From the IMG/VR virus record IMGVR_UViG_3300024518_002051, positions 1 to 36,062 of that record: a stretch of 36,062 bases of DNA; one strand, given 5' to 3'. The notes beneath the pieces are model-generated. The model saw only the letters and a program-made list of their open reading frames with translations. It searched no databases and was not told the DNA's origin. Position 1 is the stretch's first letter; each line of letters begins with the position of its first letter. Source of the stretch: a virus. The position numbers and the translations under genes are program-made. Below are positions 22,858 through 36,062 of this stretch, piece after piece.

Positions 22858-22924
22858 TTCCGTGACGCTTCCGTGACGCTTCCGTGACGGCGCTCGCTGC
22901 GACCGTCTCACGGCGCCGTCACGG
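22858..22924. repeat. 11-bp iteron-like tandem repeat with adjoining inverted repeat
   Basis: TTCCGTGACGC repeats three times without gap (22858-22868, 22869-22879, 22880-22890, the last ending in G). The third copy overlaps CCGTGACGGCGC (22882-22893), whose exact reverse complement is at 22913-22924. The same 12-mer GCGCCGTCACGG also occurs at 22689-22700. Such phased sites are typical of repressor, replication or excision protein binding. Function is inference. Confidence 0.65.
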
Positions 22925-22966
22925 CGCCCGATAACGCCGGAGTGTCCGCTCGAGTCGGCGCCAGTC

Positions 22967-23072: not shown

Positions 23073-23399
23073 ATGGGACACGAAACGAAGGCGCCGGCGG
23101 CGACGTCGGCAGAGAAAGCCGTTCTGACGGAAGCCGAAGCGGCGGCGCTTCTCGGCGTCTCGACGAAGACGCTTCAGCGCGCTCGAGGTCTGCCGGAAGG
23201 CGAGCAGCTTCCGAGCTTCACCGTCGGCACGGGCGGCCGCTCGATCCGCTATCGACGCGACGCGCTTCTGACGTGGTTCGGCGCCGGCGACGGCGAGGCC
23301 GCCGCCGCGATCGACGAGCTCGAGACGGCCGGCCGAGATCCGGTCGGCGCCGAGCGTCTCGGATCGTTCGATCCCGTCGCCGAAGAACCCAGCGAGTAA
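23073..23399 (+). CDS. Excisionase/MerR-type helix-turn-helix DNA-binding protein
   Basis: A 108-aa protein, first gene of the early operon. Residues about 18-65 (LTEAEAAALLGVSTKTLQRA, then RSIRYRRDALLTWF) match the HTH_17/excisionase-type winged helix: helix-turn-helix, wing with R-x-R-Y, and terminal helix. The remainder is acidic. GAGGAC precedes ATG 23073. It may regulate this operon, or act in replication or excision. No integrase is present in the window to support excision. Confidence 0.8.
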   Translation: MGHETKAPAATSAEKAVLTEAEAAALLGVSTKTLQRARGLPEGEQLPSFTVGTGGRSIRYRRDALLTWFGAGDGEAAAAIDELETAGRDPVGAERLGSFDPVAEEPSE

Positions 23400-23409
23400 G
23401 GGTCGGGTT

Positions 23410-23784
23410 ATGGCGAACGACGAGCCCGTTCAGCAAGTCTTCGGCTTCATCTCACCGGCGCTCGAGCCGGGCGATGGACGCTCGGCCGGCGAGCGCGATC
23501 GCGACGAAGGACGCGGCAAGGCGGCGGCGAAGCGGCCCGAGCTTCTCGCGGAAGCTCGGCGCCGCGTCATCGAGATGGCTCGTCTTCGAGAGAGTCGGAC
23601 GGCGACGGCCGACGACGTTCACAAGCTGATGGTCGGCTCGCGTTGGGGCGAAGCGGAGCTCTCGGGCGTGATGGGCTCGGTCTTCAGCGATGGCAATTGG
23701 GACGACACGGGCGAACGAGTGCGGAGCTCGCGCCGGAAGCGGAAGGCCGGCGAGGTCCGAGTCTGGAAACTGAAAGAGCCGTGA
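23410..23784 (+). CDS. Hypothetical phage protein, possibly winged-helix
   Basis: A 124-aa protein. The first ~45 residues are charged and probably disordered. The rest (TATADDVHKLMVGSRWGEAE, LSGVMGSVFSDGNWDDTGER and the ending EVRVWKLKEP) forms a compact alpha/beta pattern like small phage DNA-binding proteins with a short wHTH. It follows the HTH gene by ten bases. No specific family is recognised; a role in replication is suggested only by the neighbours. Confidence 0.7.
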   Translation: MANDEPVQQVFGFISPALEPGDGRSAGERDRDEGRGKAAAKRPELLAEARRRVIEMARLRESRTATADDVHKLMVGSRWGEAELSGVMGSVFSDGNWDDTGERVRSSRRKRKAGEVRVWKLKEP

Positions 23785-23862: not shown

Positions 23863-24273
23863 ATGACGAAGCGGAAGGCGGACAATCCGTCGACGGCGCT
23901 CAGCGTCTTTCCGTGGTTCGTCGAGCGGTTCGCGAGATCGCCCGTCGTCCGCGAGATGGACGGATTTGAGCGCGGCGTCTACTTGCTTCTGCTCGGCGAA
24001 GAGTGGACACGCCAAGGGAAGGGACTACCGCCCGAAGAATGGAAGCTTCAGGCGGCGGCGAATCTCTCGCCGGAACAATGGGCGAGCGTTCGCGAGTCGA
24101 TCCTCGCGGCGTTCTCTGTCGCCGACGGGGAGAACGGGATGGAAGTCGGGCGGCTCTACCATCCGACGTGCGAAGCCGAGATCAGAACGGCGATCACCAA
24201 TCGAGACTCGGCTCGTAAGAACGGCGCGAAGGGCGGCCGTCCGAAGAGCAAGAAAGGCGAAGCCGATGAATGA
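23863..24273 (+). CDS. DUF1376-like phage replication-associated protein
   Basis: 136 aa from ATG 23863; an upstream ATG (23800) gives an Arg-rich leader I reject. The DUF1376 signature is visible: SVFPWFVERFARSPVVREMD, then GFERGVYLLLLGEEWTRQGK, LPPEEWKLQAAANLSPEQWA and VRESILAAFSV. A cluster RKNGAKGGRPKSKK follows near the end, the usual link to a longer Asn/Pro/Ser-rich tail in these proteins. Here the gene stops soon after, and a comparable NP-repeat and Ser-run sequence appears 500 bases downstream. Such proteins sit at the replication-initiation position in phages. The next gene overlaps by eight bases. Confidence 0.82.
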   Translation: MTKRKADNPSTALSVFPWFVERFARSPVVREMDGFERGVYLLLLGEEWTRQGKGLPPEEWKLQAAANLSPEQWASVRESILAAFSVADGENGMEVGRLYHPTCEAEIRTAITNRDSARKNGAKGGRPKSKKGEADE

Positions 24274-24766
24274 ACCCGAAGATCGGAACCGATACGACGT
24301 CGCGGTCCGAACGTCCCAGTCGATCGAGGGGCTCGCGGGAGAGATACACACTCTCGCCGAGCAACGGGTCGAGCACGGCGAAGAGCTCGTCGCTCACTCG
24401 ATCATCGTCGAAGACGATCACGCAAACCGCCGTCGGCGGTTCTCGGCGATCTGCTCGTTCGCGCCGCTCGAGCTCGAGCTCGACGACGCCGTCTCGGAGC
24501 TCGTGATGCTCGGCAAGGTGATGGCGGATCTCGGCGATCGCGGCCGTCTGATTCTCTCGCTCGATCTCTCGGCGGCGGGCGGCTCGACGTTCACGTTCAC
24601 GCCGAGGCGGCTCGATCTCGATACGGGCGCCTTCGAGCTCGACGAAGCGAACGCGTCGACGGGCGGCGGCTTGACGCTCGTTCAGATCGTCGAGCAGCTC
24701 GAGCAGCTCGAGCGCGTCGCGGCGCTGGGCGAGAGCGACGAGCCCGACGAGAGGCTCGAAGGCTGA
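24266..24766 (+). CDS. Hypothetical protein in the replication region
   Basis: A 166-aa acidic protein overlapping the DUF1376 gene end by eight bases and ending in a TGATG overlap. It has two helical segments and a strand-rich middle (RGRLILSLDLSAAGGSTFTF, then LVQIVEQLEQLERVAALGES). The C-terminal half looks folded. It separates the DUF1376-like domain from sequence that resembles its usual tail, so it could be an inserted gene. No family recognised. Confidence 0.7.
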   Translation: MNEPEDRNRYDVAVRTSQSIEGLAGEIHTLAEQRVEHGEELVAHSIIVEDDHANRRRRFSAICSFAPLELELDDAVSELVMLGKVMADLGDRGRLILSLDLSAAGGSTFTFTPRRLDLDTGAFELDEANASTGGGLTLVQIVEQLEQLERVAALGESDEPDERLEG

Positions 24767-24981
24767 TGCCAGAAACCCAAAGACGAACCCAGAACGAAAC
24801 CCGGCGGCGAAGCCGCGAGGAAACCCAGGATCGAACCCGGCGGGAAACCCGGAAGGGAACCGAAGAGCGAACCCAGAAAGAACCCGGAAGAGAAGCTCTT
24901 CTTCATCTTCATCTTCAGTCTTCATCCGCGAGGGGAACCCTTTCCTCTGGTCCTTTCCCGCGATCGAGGCGCGTCCGCTGA
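24766..24981 (+). CDS. Short basic repeat protein encoded by the iteron region (uncertain)
   Basis: A 71-aa frame linked by TGATG overlaps to the genes on both sides, which favours translation. The first ~42 residues are Thr/Arg/Glu/Gln four-residue repeats (ETQ, RTQ, ETR, RTR) imposed by the 12-bp DNA repeats. All three + frames are open through the repeats, so the coding evidence is weak. The frame-zero reading gives NPxx tetrapeptides and eight serines, closer to the tail of DUF1376-type replication proteins, but has no start codon before 24981. Confidence 0.4.
   Translation: MPETQRRTQNETRRRSREETQDRTRRETRKGTEERTQKEPGREALLHLHLQSSSARGTLSSGPFPRSRRVR
24772..24891. repeat. 12-bp iteron array, candidate replication origin
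   Basis: Ten consecutive repeats begin every 12 bases at 24772, 24784, 24796, 24808, 24820, 24832, 24844, 24856, 24868 and 24880 (last one shifted by one). Consensus is (G/C)GAA(A)CCC(A/G)G followed by variable bases. Units alternate GAAACCC and CGAACCC, making a 24-bp higher period. A pyrimidine-rich CTTCTTCATCTTCATCTTC tract follows at about 24898-24920. Iterons beside a replication gene, followed by an easily melted tract, are typical of origins such as that in lambda O. Confidence 0.65.
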
Positions 24982-25348
24982 TGGGCTTGCGACGACTGAC
25001 GACGACAGACCCGATCGGGCGGATCTACTTTCGCCGGCGATCGCTCGAAGGCGAACCCGGCATCGATCAGGTGCTCCTCTTCGAGCAAGCCGCGAACCAC
25101 GTTCACCGGCTCGGCACGGTCGAGCAGATGGGCGAGCGCTGGACGGGCGCATACAAGGCGGCCGGAAGCGTCGTCGACGCTCAGCCCGGCTTCGCTCTCA
25201 GGCGCGAGGCTGCGATGTGGGTGTTCTCCCGTTGGAAGGAAGATCAGGAGCTCGACGGCGAGCGTCTTCCGGTCATCCGCTCTACTTGCCGAAGACGGCC
25301 GAGCTCGAGCCGTTCTATCCCGGCCGAGAGGAAGGGGATGGCTCGTGA
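24981..25348 (+). pseudogene. Hypothetical protein with an apparent frameshift near 25277
   Basis: From ATG 24981 (TGATG overlap) the frame reads a protein-like sequence to about residue 99 (ERLPVI). It then turns Ser/Arg-rich and ends at 25373. The other frame continues naturally as LYLPKTAELEPFYPGREEGD and stops at 25346-25348, exactly overlapping the next GTG (GTGA). One extra C in the CC run at 25277-25278 would join the parts as PVIPLYLPK. So a one-base deletion or sequencing error is likely. The intact product would be about 122 aa. Upstream in frame lie the NP-repeats and Ser run, so it might once have been the C-terminus of a replication protein. Confidence 0.55.
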
Positions 25349-25848
25349 CGGATCTCGAGCGGCTGATCGCTGAGCGCTGGCCCCGTCTCGGGCCGGCTCG
25401 AAGGGCTCGCCTCGCGGCCGAGCTCGACGGGCTCTCGCTCGAGCTCGCCCGGAATCTCGTCGGCTCGCTGAGCGCTGGACGGGCGCCGGCGATCCGCGTC
25501 GTCCGGGCGGCTCGAGCGAGAGCCCGGCCGCCGGCGCTTCCGTGGATCGGCCCGGCGGACGTCACGTCTCGAGGTCTGCTCGGGCTGGCGATCGCGCTCG
25601 GCCGGCGAAGCGATCACGGCCGCTTCGAGCTCTTCGCGACGGCGGCGTTCGCCCGGCGGCGAGCGGGGAAAAATGCCCATCTCCTCGTTCGCCGTCTGCT
25701 CGAGCTTGAGCTCGCCCCGGCGACGGCGGCCGACGAAGACGCGGCGTCGGCGATGCTGAGACGGGCGCTCTCGGAGCCGTCAGAGCCCCGGAGCCGCGCG
25801 CAAAGCCGCGATGCGGCTGAGCGACCGAGCGGAGCGCCGAGCCCGTGA
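25345..25848 (+). CDS. Hypothetical protein, GTG start
   Basis: A 167-aa Ala/Arg/Leu-rich, mostly helical protein beginning in a GTGA overlap. Distinctive segments are IAERWPRLGPARRARLAAEL, PALPWIGPADVTSRGLLGLA and the helix NAHLLVRRLLELELAPATAA. The C-terminal ~25 residues are polar and probably disordered. No family recognised. Its place in the early operon suggests a DNA-metabolism or regulatory role, unproven. Confidence 0.65.
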   Translation: MTDLERLIAERWPRLGPARRARLAAELDGLSLELARNLVGSLSAGRAPAIRVVRAARARARPPALPWIGPADVTSRGLLGLAIALGRRSDHGRFELFATAAFARRRAGKNAHLLVRRLLELELAPATAADEDAASAMLRRALSEPSEPRSRAQSRDAAERPSGAPSP

Positions 25849-27442: not shown

Positions 27443-27884
27443 TCCGACAATTGCTCAGGCGCTCGCCTTCATCGACGCTATCACGAAGTCGAGCGGCTCG
27501 GTTCACTTCGACGCCGTGCTCGGCAAAGGCGCGACGATCACGTCGAAGGACATCGAGAGCACCGATCCCGACTCGCTCGATCGCGTCGAGATCTTCCTCG
27601 AACACATCGAAGACTGCGCTCGCGTGATCCGCTTGCACATCAAAGGGCGGCCCCGTCAGACGAAGCTCGTCATCACCGACGACAAAGACGGCGGCGTCGA
27701 GCTCACTGTGAAGGGCGCCGGCGAAAAGACGGACGTCGCGAAGGATCTCAAGTCGGCGAGCGAGTCGATCAAGAAACGGCTTCAAGGGAAGGGCTCGGCG
27801 AAGGCGACGCCGAAGAAGGCGCCGAAGAAGGGGGCGCCGAAGGCGACGAAGAAGGCGGCGAAGAAGGCGGCGATCGTCAAGTGA
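27435..27884 (+). CDS. Hypothetical protein with histone H1-like lysine-rich tail
   Basis: A 149-aa protein with a folded alpha/beta N-terminal domain (residues about 1-95, including VEIFLEHIEDCARVIRLHIK and TKLVITDDKDGGVELTVKG). A Lys/Ala/Pro tail follows from about residue 117 (GKGSAKATPKKAPKKGAPKA and on). The tail is like histone H1 or HU-type C-terminal extensions and would bind DNA nonspecifically. Starts eight bases inside the previous gene and ends in a GTGA overlap. Confidence 0.75.
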   Translation: MHSPTIAQALAFIDAITKSSGSVHFDAVLGKGATITSKDIESTDPDSLDRVEIFLEHIEDCARVIRLHIKGRPRQTKLVITDDKDGGVELTVKGAGEKTDVAKDLKSASESIKKRLQGKGSAKATPKKAPKKGAPKATKKAAKKAAIVK

Positions 27885-33561: not shown

Positions 33562-36062
33562 CGCTACTCTATTCCCCGACACGAAGGACCGAAGGACAGA
33601 TCGCGAAGCCGCGCCGATGGGACTGGCGCGCTCGAGATGTCCGTCGAGACTTTCGCGGCGAAGCTCAGTCGATGCACGCTTGCATCCCGTTTTGGGAAGA
33701 CGCCGGCGAGCCGTTCGACATCGTATCGCGTCTCAAGTGCTCGTGGTCGGGGACTCACTTTCAAGAGCATAGCTGGCAGAACGCGAGCGGCTCGCATGAT
33801 CGCCGCCGTCGGTTCGGTCCGAGGATGTCGAGCGACAACAGCTCGAGCACGTCGACGCTTCTCTTCCCGCGTCCGATGCCGATCACGACGGCTCACGGTT
33901 ACACGTTTCAAATCGTCTTCACGCCGAATCAGACGACGACGCCGAATTACGTCTTCGGCGGCGACGGCGCCGGCAACCGTCAGATGTGTTGGTTCTTCGG
34001 CTCGGTCGTCTACCACCGGCCCGGCTCGGCGTTCGACGCTCACGGCCCCGTCGGCGGCTTCGCCGAGGGCGAGACGTACAATCTCATCTTTACGAACGCG
34101 GCGACGTACGGCGCTGGCTGGCAAGGCCGGCTCTTCGTGAACGGCGATCACATCGCGAGCTACGCCGCGTCGACGCCCGACGCTTGGCCTGATGGCGGGA
34201 TCTCGCGGCTTCACGGCTTCGGCTCGAACTATCCCTTTTACGGCGGGATGCACTTCATCGCGTTCCACAAGTACCCGCTGAGCAATCAGCGAGCGCGGCG
34301 CCGCTCGATGCTGAACGGCTGGCAAGGTCTGTTAGAGCCGGCTCGAGACTACTTTCGCGGCGTGCAGTTCGCCGCCGGCGCCGGCGGATGGTTCGAGAAG
34401 AAGACCTTCAACGAGTGGCACGTCGCGACGCAGAACATCCAAGAGAAGAGCGGCATCGCCTTCGACGATCGGTCGGGCGAGCGCTACTTCTACACTCACA
34501 ACAACGCCGGGCAAGCGACGATTCAGCGACTCGATCTCGAAGGCGCGAACGTCGGCGCGAGCTTCACGCTTCCCGCCGCTCTCGGCTCGAACGACATCGA
34601 ATCGATCGACTTTCTCGGCGAAGACGGCTTCGACTACGACGACGGATCAGGGACTCGAACTTTCCGATGGGCCTTTCTCGAGGAAGGCGAGGGAGCGGCG
34701 CCGAACGATCATCCGCGCATCTACTTGCTCGAGGACATGGATTCGACGACGACGTCGCTCGACGGCGCCGACTTCGCGACGCTCGAGCTCGACGACATCA
34801 CGACGGAAGCGAGCTACGGCGCGGAAGGGCTCGCGCACCGTCGCGGGACGAACGAGTTTTACATCGTCGTTCAGAAGGTCGACTCGGAAGGCGCTCTCTG
34901 GAAGGTCGAGGTTCACGATTCGCCGACGGCGCCGACTCAGACGAAGATCGTCGACACGGACACATATTCGACGGCCGGTCTGATCTCCTCGGCAGCGTTC
35001 GCCGGCGATCTCGCGATCGGTCAGAGCTGGATGGGCTCGAGCGCCGACTCGCTCTTCATTCTCTTCAACGATGGGCAGAACTCAGCGAGCGGCGACACGG
35101 GTCGAAAGATTCTCGAAGTCGATCTCGCTGGCGGCTTCATCTCGACGTTCACGCACTCGATCGAGTGGCAGTGTGAAGGGCTTTGCTTCACGGACGCGAT
35201 CGGCGGCGACGAAGATGACGGCGTCGACTTCGTGCTCGTTCAGGAGCAGCAGAGAGGCGCGTCGACGAACTTCGCGCCGAGCTTTTGGCGTTTCTCGACG
35301 CGCTCGACGACGGTTCTTCCCTGGCTCTCGACGGGTCACAAGTCGGATGACGACACCGATCAATATGCAGCGTCGCTGGCGTTTCACGATCTCGCGGACG
35401 ACGAAACGGGATGGGATGCGTTCACCGGACCCGGCGGCGACGCGACCATCACGAACATGCGCGACACGTATCACGAAGCGTTTGGCTCCAGCTTCAATAC
35501 GGCGCTCGATCCGACGGGCCGCAGAACGGTTTACGTCCGTTACTACTTCGAAGTGACGGCCGCTCAGCTCGCAGCGTGCGACGACATCCGTCTCGCGTAC
35601 ATCGTCGACGCCGGCGCCGACGTCTATCTGAACGGGACGAACGTACTCGAGTACAACTGTCCAGCGACGAAGAACCACGCCGGGCGAGCGCCGGCGGCGA
35701 TCGGCGGCCAGGAAGAAGGAAACAAGCATCAGAGCATCGTCGCGAAGACGGCGCTCGTCGCCGGGACGAACCGACTCGACATCGGCGGCTTCAACGAAGG
35801 CGGCGCCGACGTCTGTCAAGAGTGGCGCGTCGATCTGAGAAGCGACGAGCCGTCCGCTGGCGCCGTCGAGATCACGCTCGGCGCGAACGTCGCCGCTCAG
35901 GCGTCGGCCGCTCTCACGCCGTCGAAGCGGATCGAGGTAGGCGCGAACGTCGCGCCGCAAGGTTCCGCCGCGCTGATCGTCTCGCGTCTGCTCGAGCTCG
36001 GCGCGAACGTCGCGCCGCAAGCGTCGACCGTTCTCAGCGTCTCGCGTCTGCTCGAGCTCGGC
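33558..36062 (+). CDS. Large fibre/adhesin-like protein, partial, runs off the window
   Basis: Open from ATG 33558 (ATGA overlap) for 835 codons to the window end without a stop. Domains in order: residues about 40-245, a concanavalin/LamG-like lectin (HGYTFQIVFTPNQTTTPNYV, WQGRLFVNGDHIASYAAST). Then about 285-600, a repeating-strand region (SGIAFDDRSGERYFYTHNNA, FWRFSTRSTTVLPW) that may be a beta-propeller of the SdiA-regulated/esterase-like type. Then about 620-770, a jelly-roll-like domain (VYVRYYFEVTAAQLAACDDI, DAGADVYLNGTNVLEYN). From 775, 20-residue repeats (GANVAPQASAAL, then VSRLLEL) begin. It probably binds host or environmental glycans. Domain names are judged by eye. Confidence 0.8.
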   Translation, partial: MTLLYSPTRRTEGQIAKPRRWDWRARDVRRDFRGEAQSMHACIPFWEDAGEPFDIVSRLKCSWSGTHFQEHSWQNASGSHDRRRRFGPRMSSDNSSSTSTLLFPRPMPITTAHGYTFQIVFTPNQTTTPNYVFGGDGAGNRQMCWFFGSVVYHRPGSAFDAHGPVGGFAEGETYNLIFTNAATYGAGWQGRLFVNGDHIASYAASTPDAWPDGGISRLHGFGSNYPFYGGMHFIAFHKYPLSNQRARRRSMLNGWQGLLEPARDYFRGVQFAAGAGGWFEKKTFNEWHVATQNIQEKSGIAFDDRSGERYFYTHNNAGQATIQRLDLEGANVGASFTLPAALGSNDIESIDFLGEDGFDYDDGSGTRTFRWAFLEEGEGAAPNDHPRIYLLEDMDSTTTSLDGADFATLELDDITTEASYGAEGLAHRRGTNEFYIVVQKVDSEGALWKVEVHDSPTAPTQTKIVDTDTYSTAGLISSAAFAGDLAIGQSWMGSSADSLFILFNDGQNSASGDTGRKILEVDLAGGFISTFTHSIEWQCEGLCFTDAIGGDEDDGVDFVLVQEQQRGASTNFAPSFWRFSTRSTTVLPWLSTGHKSDDDTDQYAASLAFHDLADDETGWDAFTGPGGDATITNMRDTYHEAFGSSFNTALDPTGRRTVYVRYYFEVTAAQLAACDDIRLAYIVDAGADVYLNGTNVLEYNCPATKNHAGRAPAAIGGQEEGNKHQSIVAKTALVAGTNRLDIGGFNEGGADVCQEWRVDLRSDEPSAGAVEITLGANVAAQASAALTPSKRIEVGANVAPQGSAALIVSRLLELGANVAPQASTVLSVSRLLELG
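35881..36062 (+). repeat. 60-bp in-frame tandem repeat at the window end
   Basis: Repeats start at 35881, 35941, 36001 and 36061 with exact 60-bp spacing, each beginning GCGCGAACGTCGC. The second and third share GCGCCGCAA and end in CTCGCGTCTGCTCGAGCTCG. The encoded unit is 20 residues. The fourth copy is cut by the window edge, so the real number of copies is unknown. Confidence 0.9.

What the first reader, a model, noticed from the sequence alone, without database searches (positions are those of the whole stretch)
24772..24920. Ten 12-bp phased iterons: candidate replication origin between replication genes
Seen: AACCC or its variants recur every 12 bases ten times, with a 24-bp alternation of GAAACCC and CGAACCC, then a pyrimidine tract. 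All three + frames are open here, and the encoded peptide is a by-product in each frame (NPxx, ETQ/RTR, KPxx). Known: phage origins such as the one inside lambda O use iterons plus a melted tract. Inference: this is the origin, bound by a product of the adjoining operon. A 12-bp period is short (just over one helix turn) and would place many protein contacts nearly in phase.
Basis: partly seen in the sequence, partly recalled or inferred. Interest (0 to 1): 0.75.

Follow-up and report, generated by a model that had tools for sequence, protein, structure and literature searches.

The report
Phased iterons beside a phage initiator
A phage genome carries ten short DNA repeats, one helix turn apart and followed by its most meltable stretch, next to a gene for a likely replication initiator; comparison with over a hundred related genes suggests this is where the phage starts copying its DNA.

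Summary
The repeat is real: ten units, 24772-24891, eight with exact AACCC, spaced 12 bp (last step 11 bp). Shuffled sequence never gives this. All three + frames are open, but none has the codon usage of this phage's genes, so the block is probably non-coding DNA. The 40-mer directly 3' (24886-24925, TCTTCA tract) ties for the AT-richest of the 36-kb window.

The gene two upstream, 23863-24273, has the DUF1376 domain of phage primosomal proteins. In 115 non-redundant DUF1376 genes the linker after the domain carries DNA repeats of 11 or 12 bp beyond what the protein demands. The 11-bp period breaks the reading frame, so these are DNA elements. A 6-bp tandem tract often follows. The window's exact alternation occurs in one other IMG/VR virus, inside a replication initiator gene beside a primase. 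In two actinophages the repeats or tract lie after a short initiator gene's stop, as here.

Best reading: an iteron-type origin, lambda-like in plan, with iterons one helix turn apart and outside the initiator's reading frame. Protein binding and origin activity are untested; no close relative of this phage was found. Probability about 0.7.

The parts
24772..24891 (+). Ten tandem iterons, alternating GAAACCC/CGAACCC, spacing 12 bp (8 steps) then 11 bp (last step)
   Evidence: 0 of 100 shuffles match
24886..24925 (.). AT-rich stretch 3' of the iterons (40 bp at 40% GC in a 65% GC window), tied for lowest GC of the window; putative unwinding element
24900..24926 (+). 6-bp TCTTCA tandem tract (4.3 copies), analogous to the 6-bp tracts after iterons in relatives
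   Evidence: relatives
23863..24273 (+). DUF1376-domain protein, 136 aa, no C-terminal domain; candidate initiator / iteron-binding protein
   Evidence: Pfam PF07120 E 1.1e-7; PHROG primosomal proteins; AlphaFold2 pLDDT 87
24266..24766 (+). Gene of unknown function between the DUF1376 gene and the iterons (MNEPEDRNRYDV...RLEG)
   Evidence: strong coding score 0.45 per codon; no family match
24766..24981 (+). Open frame over the iterons (MPETQRRTQ...), TGATG junctions at both ends; probably a by-product
   Evidence: per-codon score -0.27; all three + frames below the 5th percentile of real genes (0.18)
23073..23399 (+). HTH_17 / excisionase-like DNA-binding protein, first gene of the operon
   Evidence: Pfam HTH_17 E 1.9e-8; phrog_66 E 1.1e-6
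23410..23784 (+). Unknown protein of the same operon
   Evidence: coding score 0.33; no family match
24981..25373 (+). Next gene downstream of the block, unknown function
   Evidence: coding score 0.18, borderline

Best explanation
24772-24926 is most likely the replication origin, or its initiator-binding core: ten iterons about one helix turn apart, followed by an AT-rich 6-bp tandem tract that melts. The likely binder is the winged-helix-like DUF1376 protein (23863-24273). Bound side by side on one face of the DNA, it would bend the iterons, open the AT-rich tract and let the replicative helicase load, as lambda O does. In most DUF1376 genes these elements lie inside the initiator's linker. 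Here the initiator is a short domain-only protein and the elements lie in an effectively non-coding gap about 500 bp downstream, past one extra gene. Shown: the repeat, the AT minimum, the coding statistics, the family-wide frame-independent DNA periodicity, and parallel split cases. Inferred: binding, melting and origin activity.
For: Repeat beyond chance. AT-richest 40-mer directly 3'. Block not coding-like in any + frame. DUF1376 upstream. In 115 non-redundant DUF1376 linkers, lag 11 z=14.1, lag 22 z=5.6, lag 12 z=6.0 against synonymous shuffles; 38 loci significant at period 11 and 13 at period 12, about 1 expected, most other periods 1-3 and period 7 in 7. The best 11/12-bp repeat of a ~4-kb locus lies in the linker in 59 of 107 loci; for period 11 alone 48, for other single periods 7-20. 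Within these genes the AT-richest 40-mer clusters at residues 100-150 (72 of 112) and near-perfect 6-bp tracts lie in the linker in 18 of 20. The exact alternation of the window occurs in one other virus, in a replication initiator (E 1.4e-69) beside a primase/helicase. Mycobacterium, Gordonia, Arthrobacter and Microbacterium phages of that initiator family carry similar elements, in EastWest and R1 after the stop of a domain-only gene.
Against: No close relative with this block was found. GC skew gives no switch. No helicase, loader or primase recognised in the genes tested. Phased AACCC repeats alone are not diagnostic: CGAACCC x3 mostly finds EPEP/NPNP repeats in unrelated proteins (1 of 85 with a GGRP linker) and AAACCC x3 beats its reversed control only modestly (11 against 6 of 95). 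TGATG junctions at both ends of the small ORF look gene-like. The structural match to known initiators is weak.
Confidence: 0.7

Rival explanations
1. The block is a small Arg/Glu-rich coding gene (24766-24981, MPETQRRTQNETRRR...) or a detached linker of the DUF1376 protein; the DNA period merely reflects a 4-residue protein repeat.
For: TGATG overlaps at both ends; frame open for 71 codons; same frame as the DUF1376 gene.
Against: Codon score -0.27, in the off-frame range; the last step is 11 bp, which breaks the protein repeat; in the family the 11-bp period cannot be protein-driven.
Confidence: 0.12
2. A slippage-born minisatellite without function.
For: Units are similar and tandem, which slippage makes; another 12-bp repeat of equal score exists in a protein tail.
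Against: Diverged spacers beside conserved cores, alternation of two cores, placement near an initiator gene and the window's AT minimum, and the same plan in other initiator loci.
Confidence: 0.08
3. A DNA site for another purpose: operator of the early operon or a partition centromere.
For: Phased repeats also occur in operators and centromeres (general knowledge); the operon encodes an HTH_17 protein.
Against: No partition gene recognised in the genes tested; the site lies inside the operon, not at its start; a separate operator-like cluster sits upstream of the operon at 22858-22929.
Confidence: 0.1

Closest known systems
Phage lambda origin inside gene O (and Stx phages), PMC7466680
   Same: Iterons next to an AT-rich stretch, at the initiator gene; extra iterons simply lengthen the O protein. 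Lambda iteron starts lie 20, 24 and 23 bp apart, so they ignore the frame too.
   Different: Lambda iterons are 18-19-bp imperfect inverted repeats, four, inside the O reading frame; here ten shorter units about one helix turn apart, outside any coding-like frame; initiator family DUF1376, not O.
DUF1376 / YdaU primosomal proteins of phages (Rac prophage ydaU; Azospirillum phage Cd gp15)
   Same: Same Pfam domain; linkers of this family carry 11/12-bp DNA repeats and 6-bp tracts.
   Different: In most members the elements lie inside the gene and the iteron sequence is clade-specific (for example GTTCAACGTTC in L242); here they are separate and of AACCC type. No paper on their origins was found in the library.
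Actinophage replication initiators (phrog_3171; GUmbie, Love, EastWest, MoxS-R1; IMG/VR L556)
   Same: 12-bp AACCC-like units then a 6-bp pyrimidine tract; L556 has the window's exact alternation; EastWest and R1 have elements after a domain-only gene.
   Different: Different initiator family; most have the elements inside the gene.
Mycobacteriophage Miko/Rachaly/Jeeves RepA origins, PMC7157519
   Same: repA plus flanks suffices for plasmid replication, and the authors place the origin in or beside repA.
   Different: They identified no repeats there; membership of that RepA in any family here was not tested.

Membership tests
DUF1376 (PF07120) primosomal protein | Pfam domain above gathering score | tested here: met
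   32.6 bits against 30.1; BFVD neighbours are DUF1376 proteins
DUF1376 (PF07120) primosomal protein | Linker and C-terminal domain after the DUF1376 domain (common, not universal) | tested here: not met
   Protein ends 24273, KGGRPKSKKGEADE; short members also exist
Iteron-type origin beside an initiator gene (lambda kind) | Tandem direct repeats beyond chance | tested here: met
Iteron-type origin beside an initiator gene (lambda kind) | Adjacent AT-rich unwinding region | tested here: met
   lowest-GC 40-mer of the window, tied
Iteron-type origin beside an initiator gene (lambda kind) | Initiator gene at or next to the repeats | tested here: met
   DUF1376 gene two genes upstream, about 500 bp from the iterons
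Iteron-type origin beside an initiator gene (lambda kind) | DNA repeat conserved independently of the encoded peptide | tested here: inconclusive
   Met for the DUF1376 family as a whole; for the window itself no close relative exists to compare
Iteron-type origin beside an initiator gene (lambda kind) | Specific initiator binding and replication from the site | not testable with these tools
   needs bench work
Lambda O family | Initiator homologous to lambda O | tested here: not met
   Matches are DUF1376 and primosomal families, not Phage_rep_O

The most novel reading that the evidence does not exclude
Several unrelated families of phage replication initiators carry their origin as 11/12-bp (one helix turn) iterons plus a 6-bp melting tract in the DNA of their linker, kept as DNA through any reading frame; some phages, including this one, have moved these elements out of the initiator gene altogether. 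If so, origins can be read off many phage and prophage genomes.
Probability: 0.5. Interest if true: 0.75.

Novelty: new variant of a known kind. Interest (0 to 1): 0.62.

Why it matters
Origins are unknown for most phages. DUF1376 is a common replication-module protein annotated as unknown function, with no origin described in the papers searched. A frame-breaking repeat in its linker gives a sequence rule for finding these origins, would explain the odd TDTDTD/SPSPSP/NPNPNP linkers as by-products of DNA, and can be tested in laboratory E. coli, whose Rac prophage carries a DUF1376 gene (ydaU) with similar repeats.

Tried and rejected
Close relatives by the DUF1376 protein: none in viral contigs, one distant phage. 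Relatives by terminase: 40-51% identical, but no DUF1376 and no AACCC pair at 12 bp; phased repeats in three of them were weak and nothing like the block. DNA similarity of the block to phages: none. GC skew: no switch. Blind AAACCC x3 scan as proof: found several replication initiators in all three frames, but the reversed control finds some too and CGAACCC x3 is mostly low complexity, so it is only suggestive. Lambda O as a positive control for the autocorrelation test: weak (z up to 2.9), because its spacings vary. Fold search in the PDB: only weak winged-helix hits, some of them plasmid initiators, E 0.4-0.9. No solved relative by sequence. RefSeq lists no oriJ feature at ydaU, so the Rac origin could not serve as a control.

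Full report
What is there. The window is a 36,062-base virus record, 65% GC, with terminase, portal, head protease, major head protein, tape measure and tail fibre genes. At 24772-24891 ten units lie in tandem: GAAACCCAAAGA, CGAACCCAGAAC, GAAACCCGGCGG, CGAAGCCGCGAG, GAAACCCAGGAT, CGAACCCGGCGG, GAAACCCGGAAG, GGAACCGAAGAG, CGAACCCAGAAA, GAACCCGGAAGA. Eight steps are 12 bp; the last is 11 (AACCC at 24870 and 24881). Shuffling the window never gave three AACCC in this phase, and the period-12 score is 9.86 against at most 5.97 in shuffles. A second 12-bp repeat of equal score is a lysine-rich protein tail, so a 12-bp period by itself proves nothing.

Is the block coding? Against codon usage of seven genes of this window (six with PHROG matches), the DUF1376 gene scores 0.28 per codon and the next gene (24266-24766) 0.45, while the block 24766-24981 scores -0.27, -0.01 and -0.15 in its three + frames; 71-codon windows of real genes have a 5th percentile of 0.18. 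The block therefore behaves as non-coding DNA, although an ORF with TGATG junctions at both ends spans it. Its 3' neighbour 24886-24925 is, with 12798, the lowest-GC 40-mer of the window, and contains a TCTTCA tandem tract.

Neighbours. 23863-24273 encodes a DUF1376 protein related to PHROG primosomal proteins. It ends in KGGRPKSKKGEADE, where most relatives run on into a linker and a C-terminal domain. A predicted structure (pLDDT 87) resembles DUF1376, Lin1244-type and replisome-organiser proteins of phages and, weakly, winged-helix domains including plasmid initiators and ORC2.

Family test. Loci were collected by the DUF1376 domain alone, so the linker was not used to choose them: 80 from bacterial genomes, 80 from viral contigs, 37 from two phylum-wide draws and named phages. 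In 115 non-redundant linkers, base identity at lag 11 exceeds synonymous-codon shuffles of the same protein by 14 SD, at lag 22 by 5.6 and at lag 12 by 6.0; lags 13 and 14 are negative and lag 10 gives 2.8. In the domain and after the linker, lag 11 gives 4.6 and 2.5. Per locus, 38 are significant at period 11 and 13 at period 12, with about 1 expected. An 11-bp period shifts the reading frame at each copy, so it cannot come from a protein repeat; L242, L201 and L298 show it plainly. Iteron sequences differ by clade. The best 11/12-bp repeat of the locus lies in the linker in 59 of 107 loci. A 6-bp tract (GATACA, CACCTT, CATTCA and others) often follows, and the AT-richest 40-mer of the gene clusters in the linker. 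The loci are not fully independent by descent, so the z-scores are not probabilities.

AACCC-type elsewhere. The window's exact alternation, GAAACCC-N5-CGAACCC-N5-GAAACCC, occurs in the viral collection in one distinct virus, L556/L557. It lies in the linker of a replication initiation protein (E 1.4e-69), next to a primase/helicase gene (E 1.1e-41), and is followed by a CCTACT/CCTGCT tract. Named actinophages with the same initiator show 12-bp AACCCC, GACCCC or AAGGGT units and a CTACTCC-type tract, read in different frames, for example T-P in GUmbie and N-P in Love. In Arthrobacter phage EastWest the initiator gene is domain-only and its 12-bp units start right after the stop; in Microbacterium phage R1 a CTACAT tract fills the gap after a domain-only gene. 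These are parallels for the window, where the elements have left the initiator's frame. Homogeneous AACCC repeats are not diagnostic.

Mechanism. Lambda's origin lies in gene O: iterons bound by O, then an AT-rich region (PMC7466680); lambda iterons also ignore the frame (starts 20, 24, 23 bp apart). By analogy the DUF1376 protein would bind the iterons, spaced about one turn so that contacts fall on nearly the same face, bend the DNA, open the AT-rich tract and admit the helicase. Binding, opening and replication are inferred. For mycobacteriophage RepA, repA with its flanks is enough for replication and the origin was placed in or beside repA without repeats being found (PMC7157519). Papers that mention DUF1376 or YdaU, and searches for phage iterons, gave no description of this arrangement in the held library (search lists were read, and only a few papers opened); subscription papers are not held, so an earlier report cannot be excluded.

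Limits. The window has no close relative in reach, so the conservation test was made on the family, not on this phage. GC skew is uninformative. A second cluster, 22858-22929, upstream of the operon, has three 11-bp CCGTGA units and two inverted ones but no AT-rich stretch; it looks like an operator and is the main alternative site for initiator binding.

Noticed in passing
window 22858-22929: Three perfect 11-bp CCGTGACGCTT-type repeats (CCGTGA at 22860, 22871, 22882) and two inverted TCACGGCGCCG units, in the gap before the operon, upstream of a TTGACG...TACTCT promoter-like site; operator-like, or a second binding site.
   Followed up: partly
L150, L151, L271, L277, L278, L423: DUF1376 proteins with what looks like a GIY-YIG-type domain inserted between the DUF1376 domain and the linker (judged by eye); L150 and L151 keep a GATACA-type tract after the insert but with other repeat units (CTACG-type).
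   Followed up: partly
window 35876-36062: 60-bp tandem repeat, 3.1 copies, running to the end of the record.
   Followed up: no
window 27811-27873: 12-bp repeat that is a KKAPKKGAPKATKKAAKK protein tail; scores as high as the iterons and serves as a coding counter-example.
   Followed up: yes
L013 and L567 (E. coli ydaU): The Rac prophage ydaU linker has repeats of the TGTTCAAACA type; Rac is reported to have an active origin, oriJ (PMC3945230), whose exact place could not be checked here.
   Followed up: partly
L216:2337-2420: Seven near-perfect 12-bp AATGCTCCAAGC units in a DUF1376 linker of a Rhodoplanes MAG.
   Followed up: no
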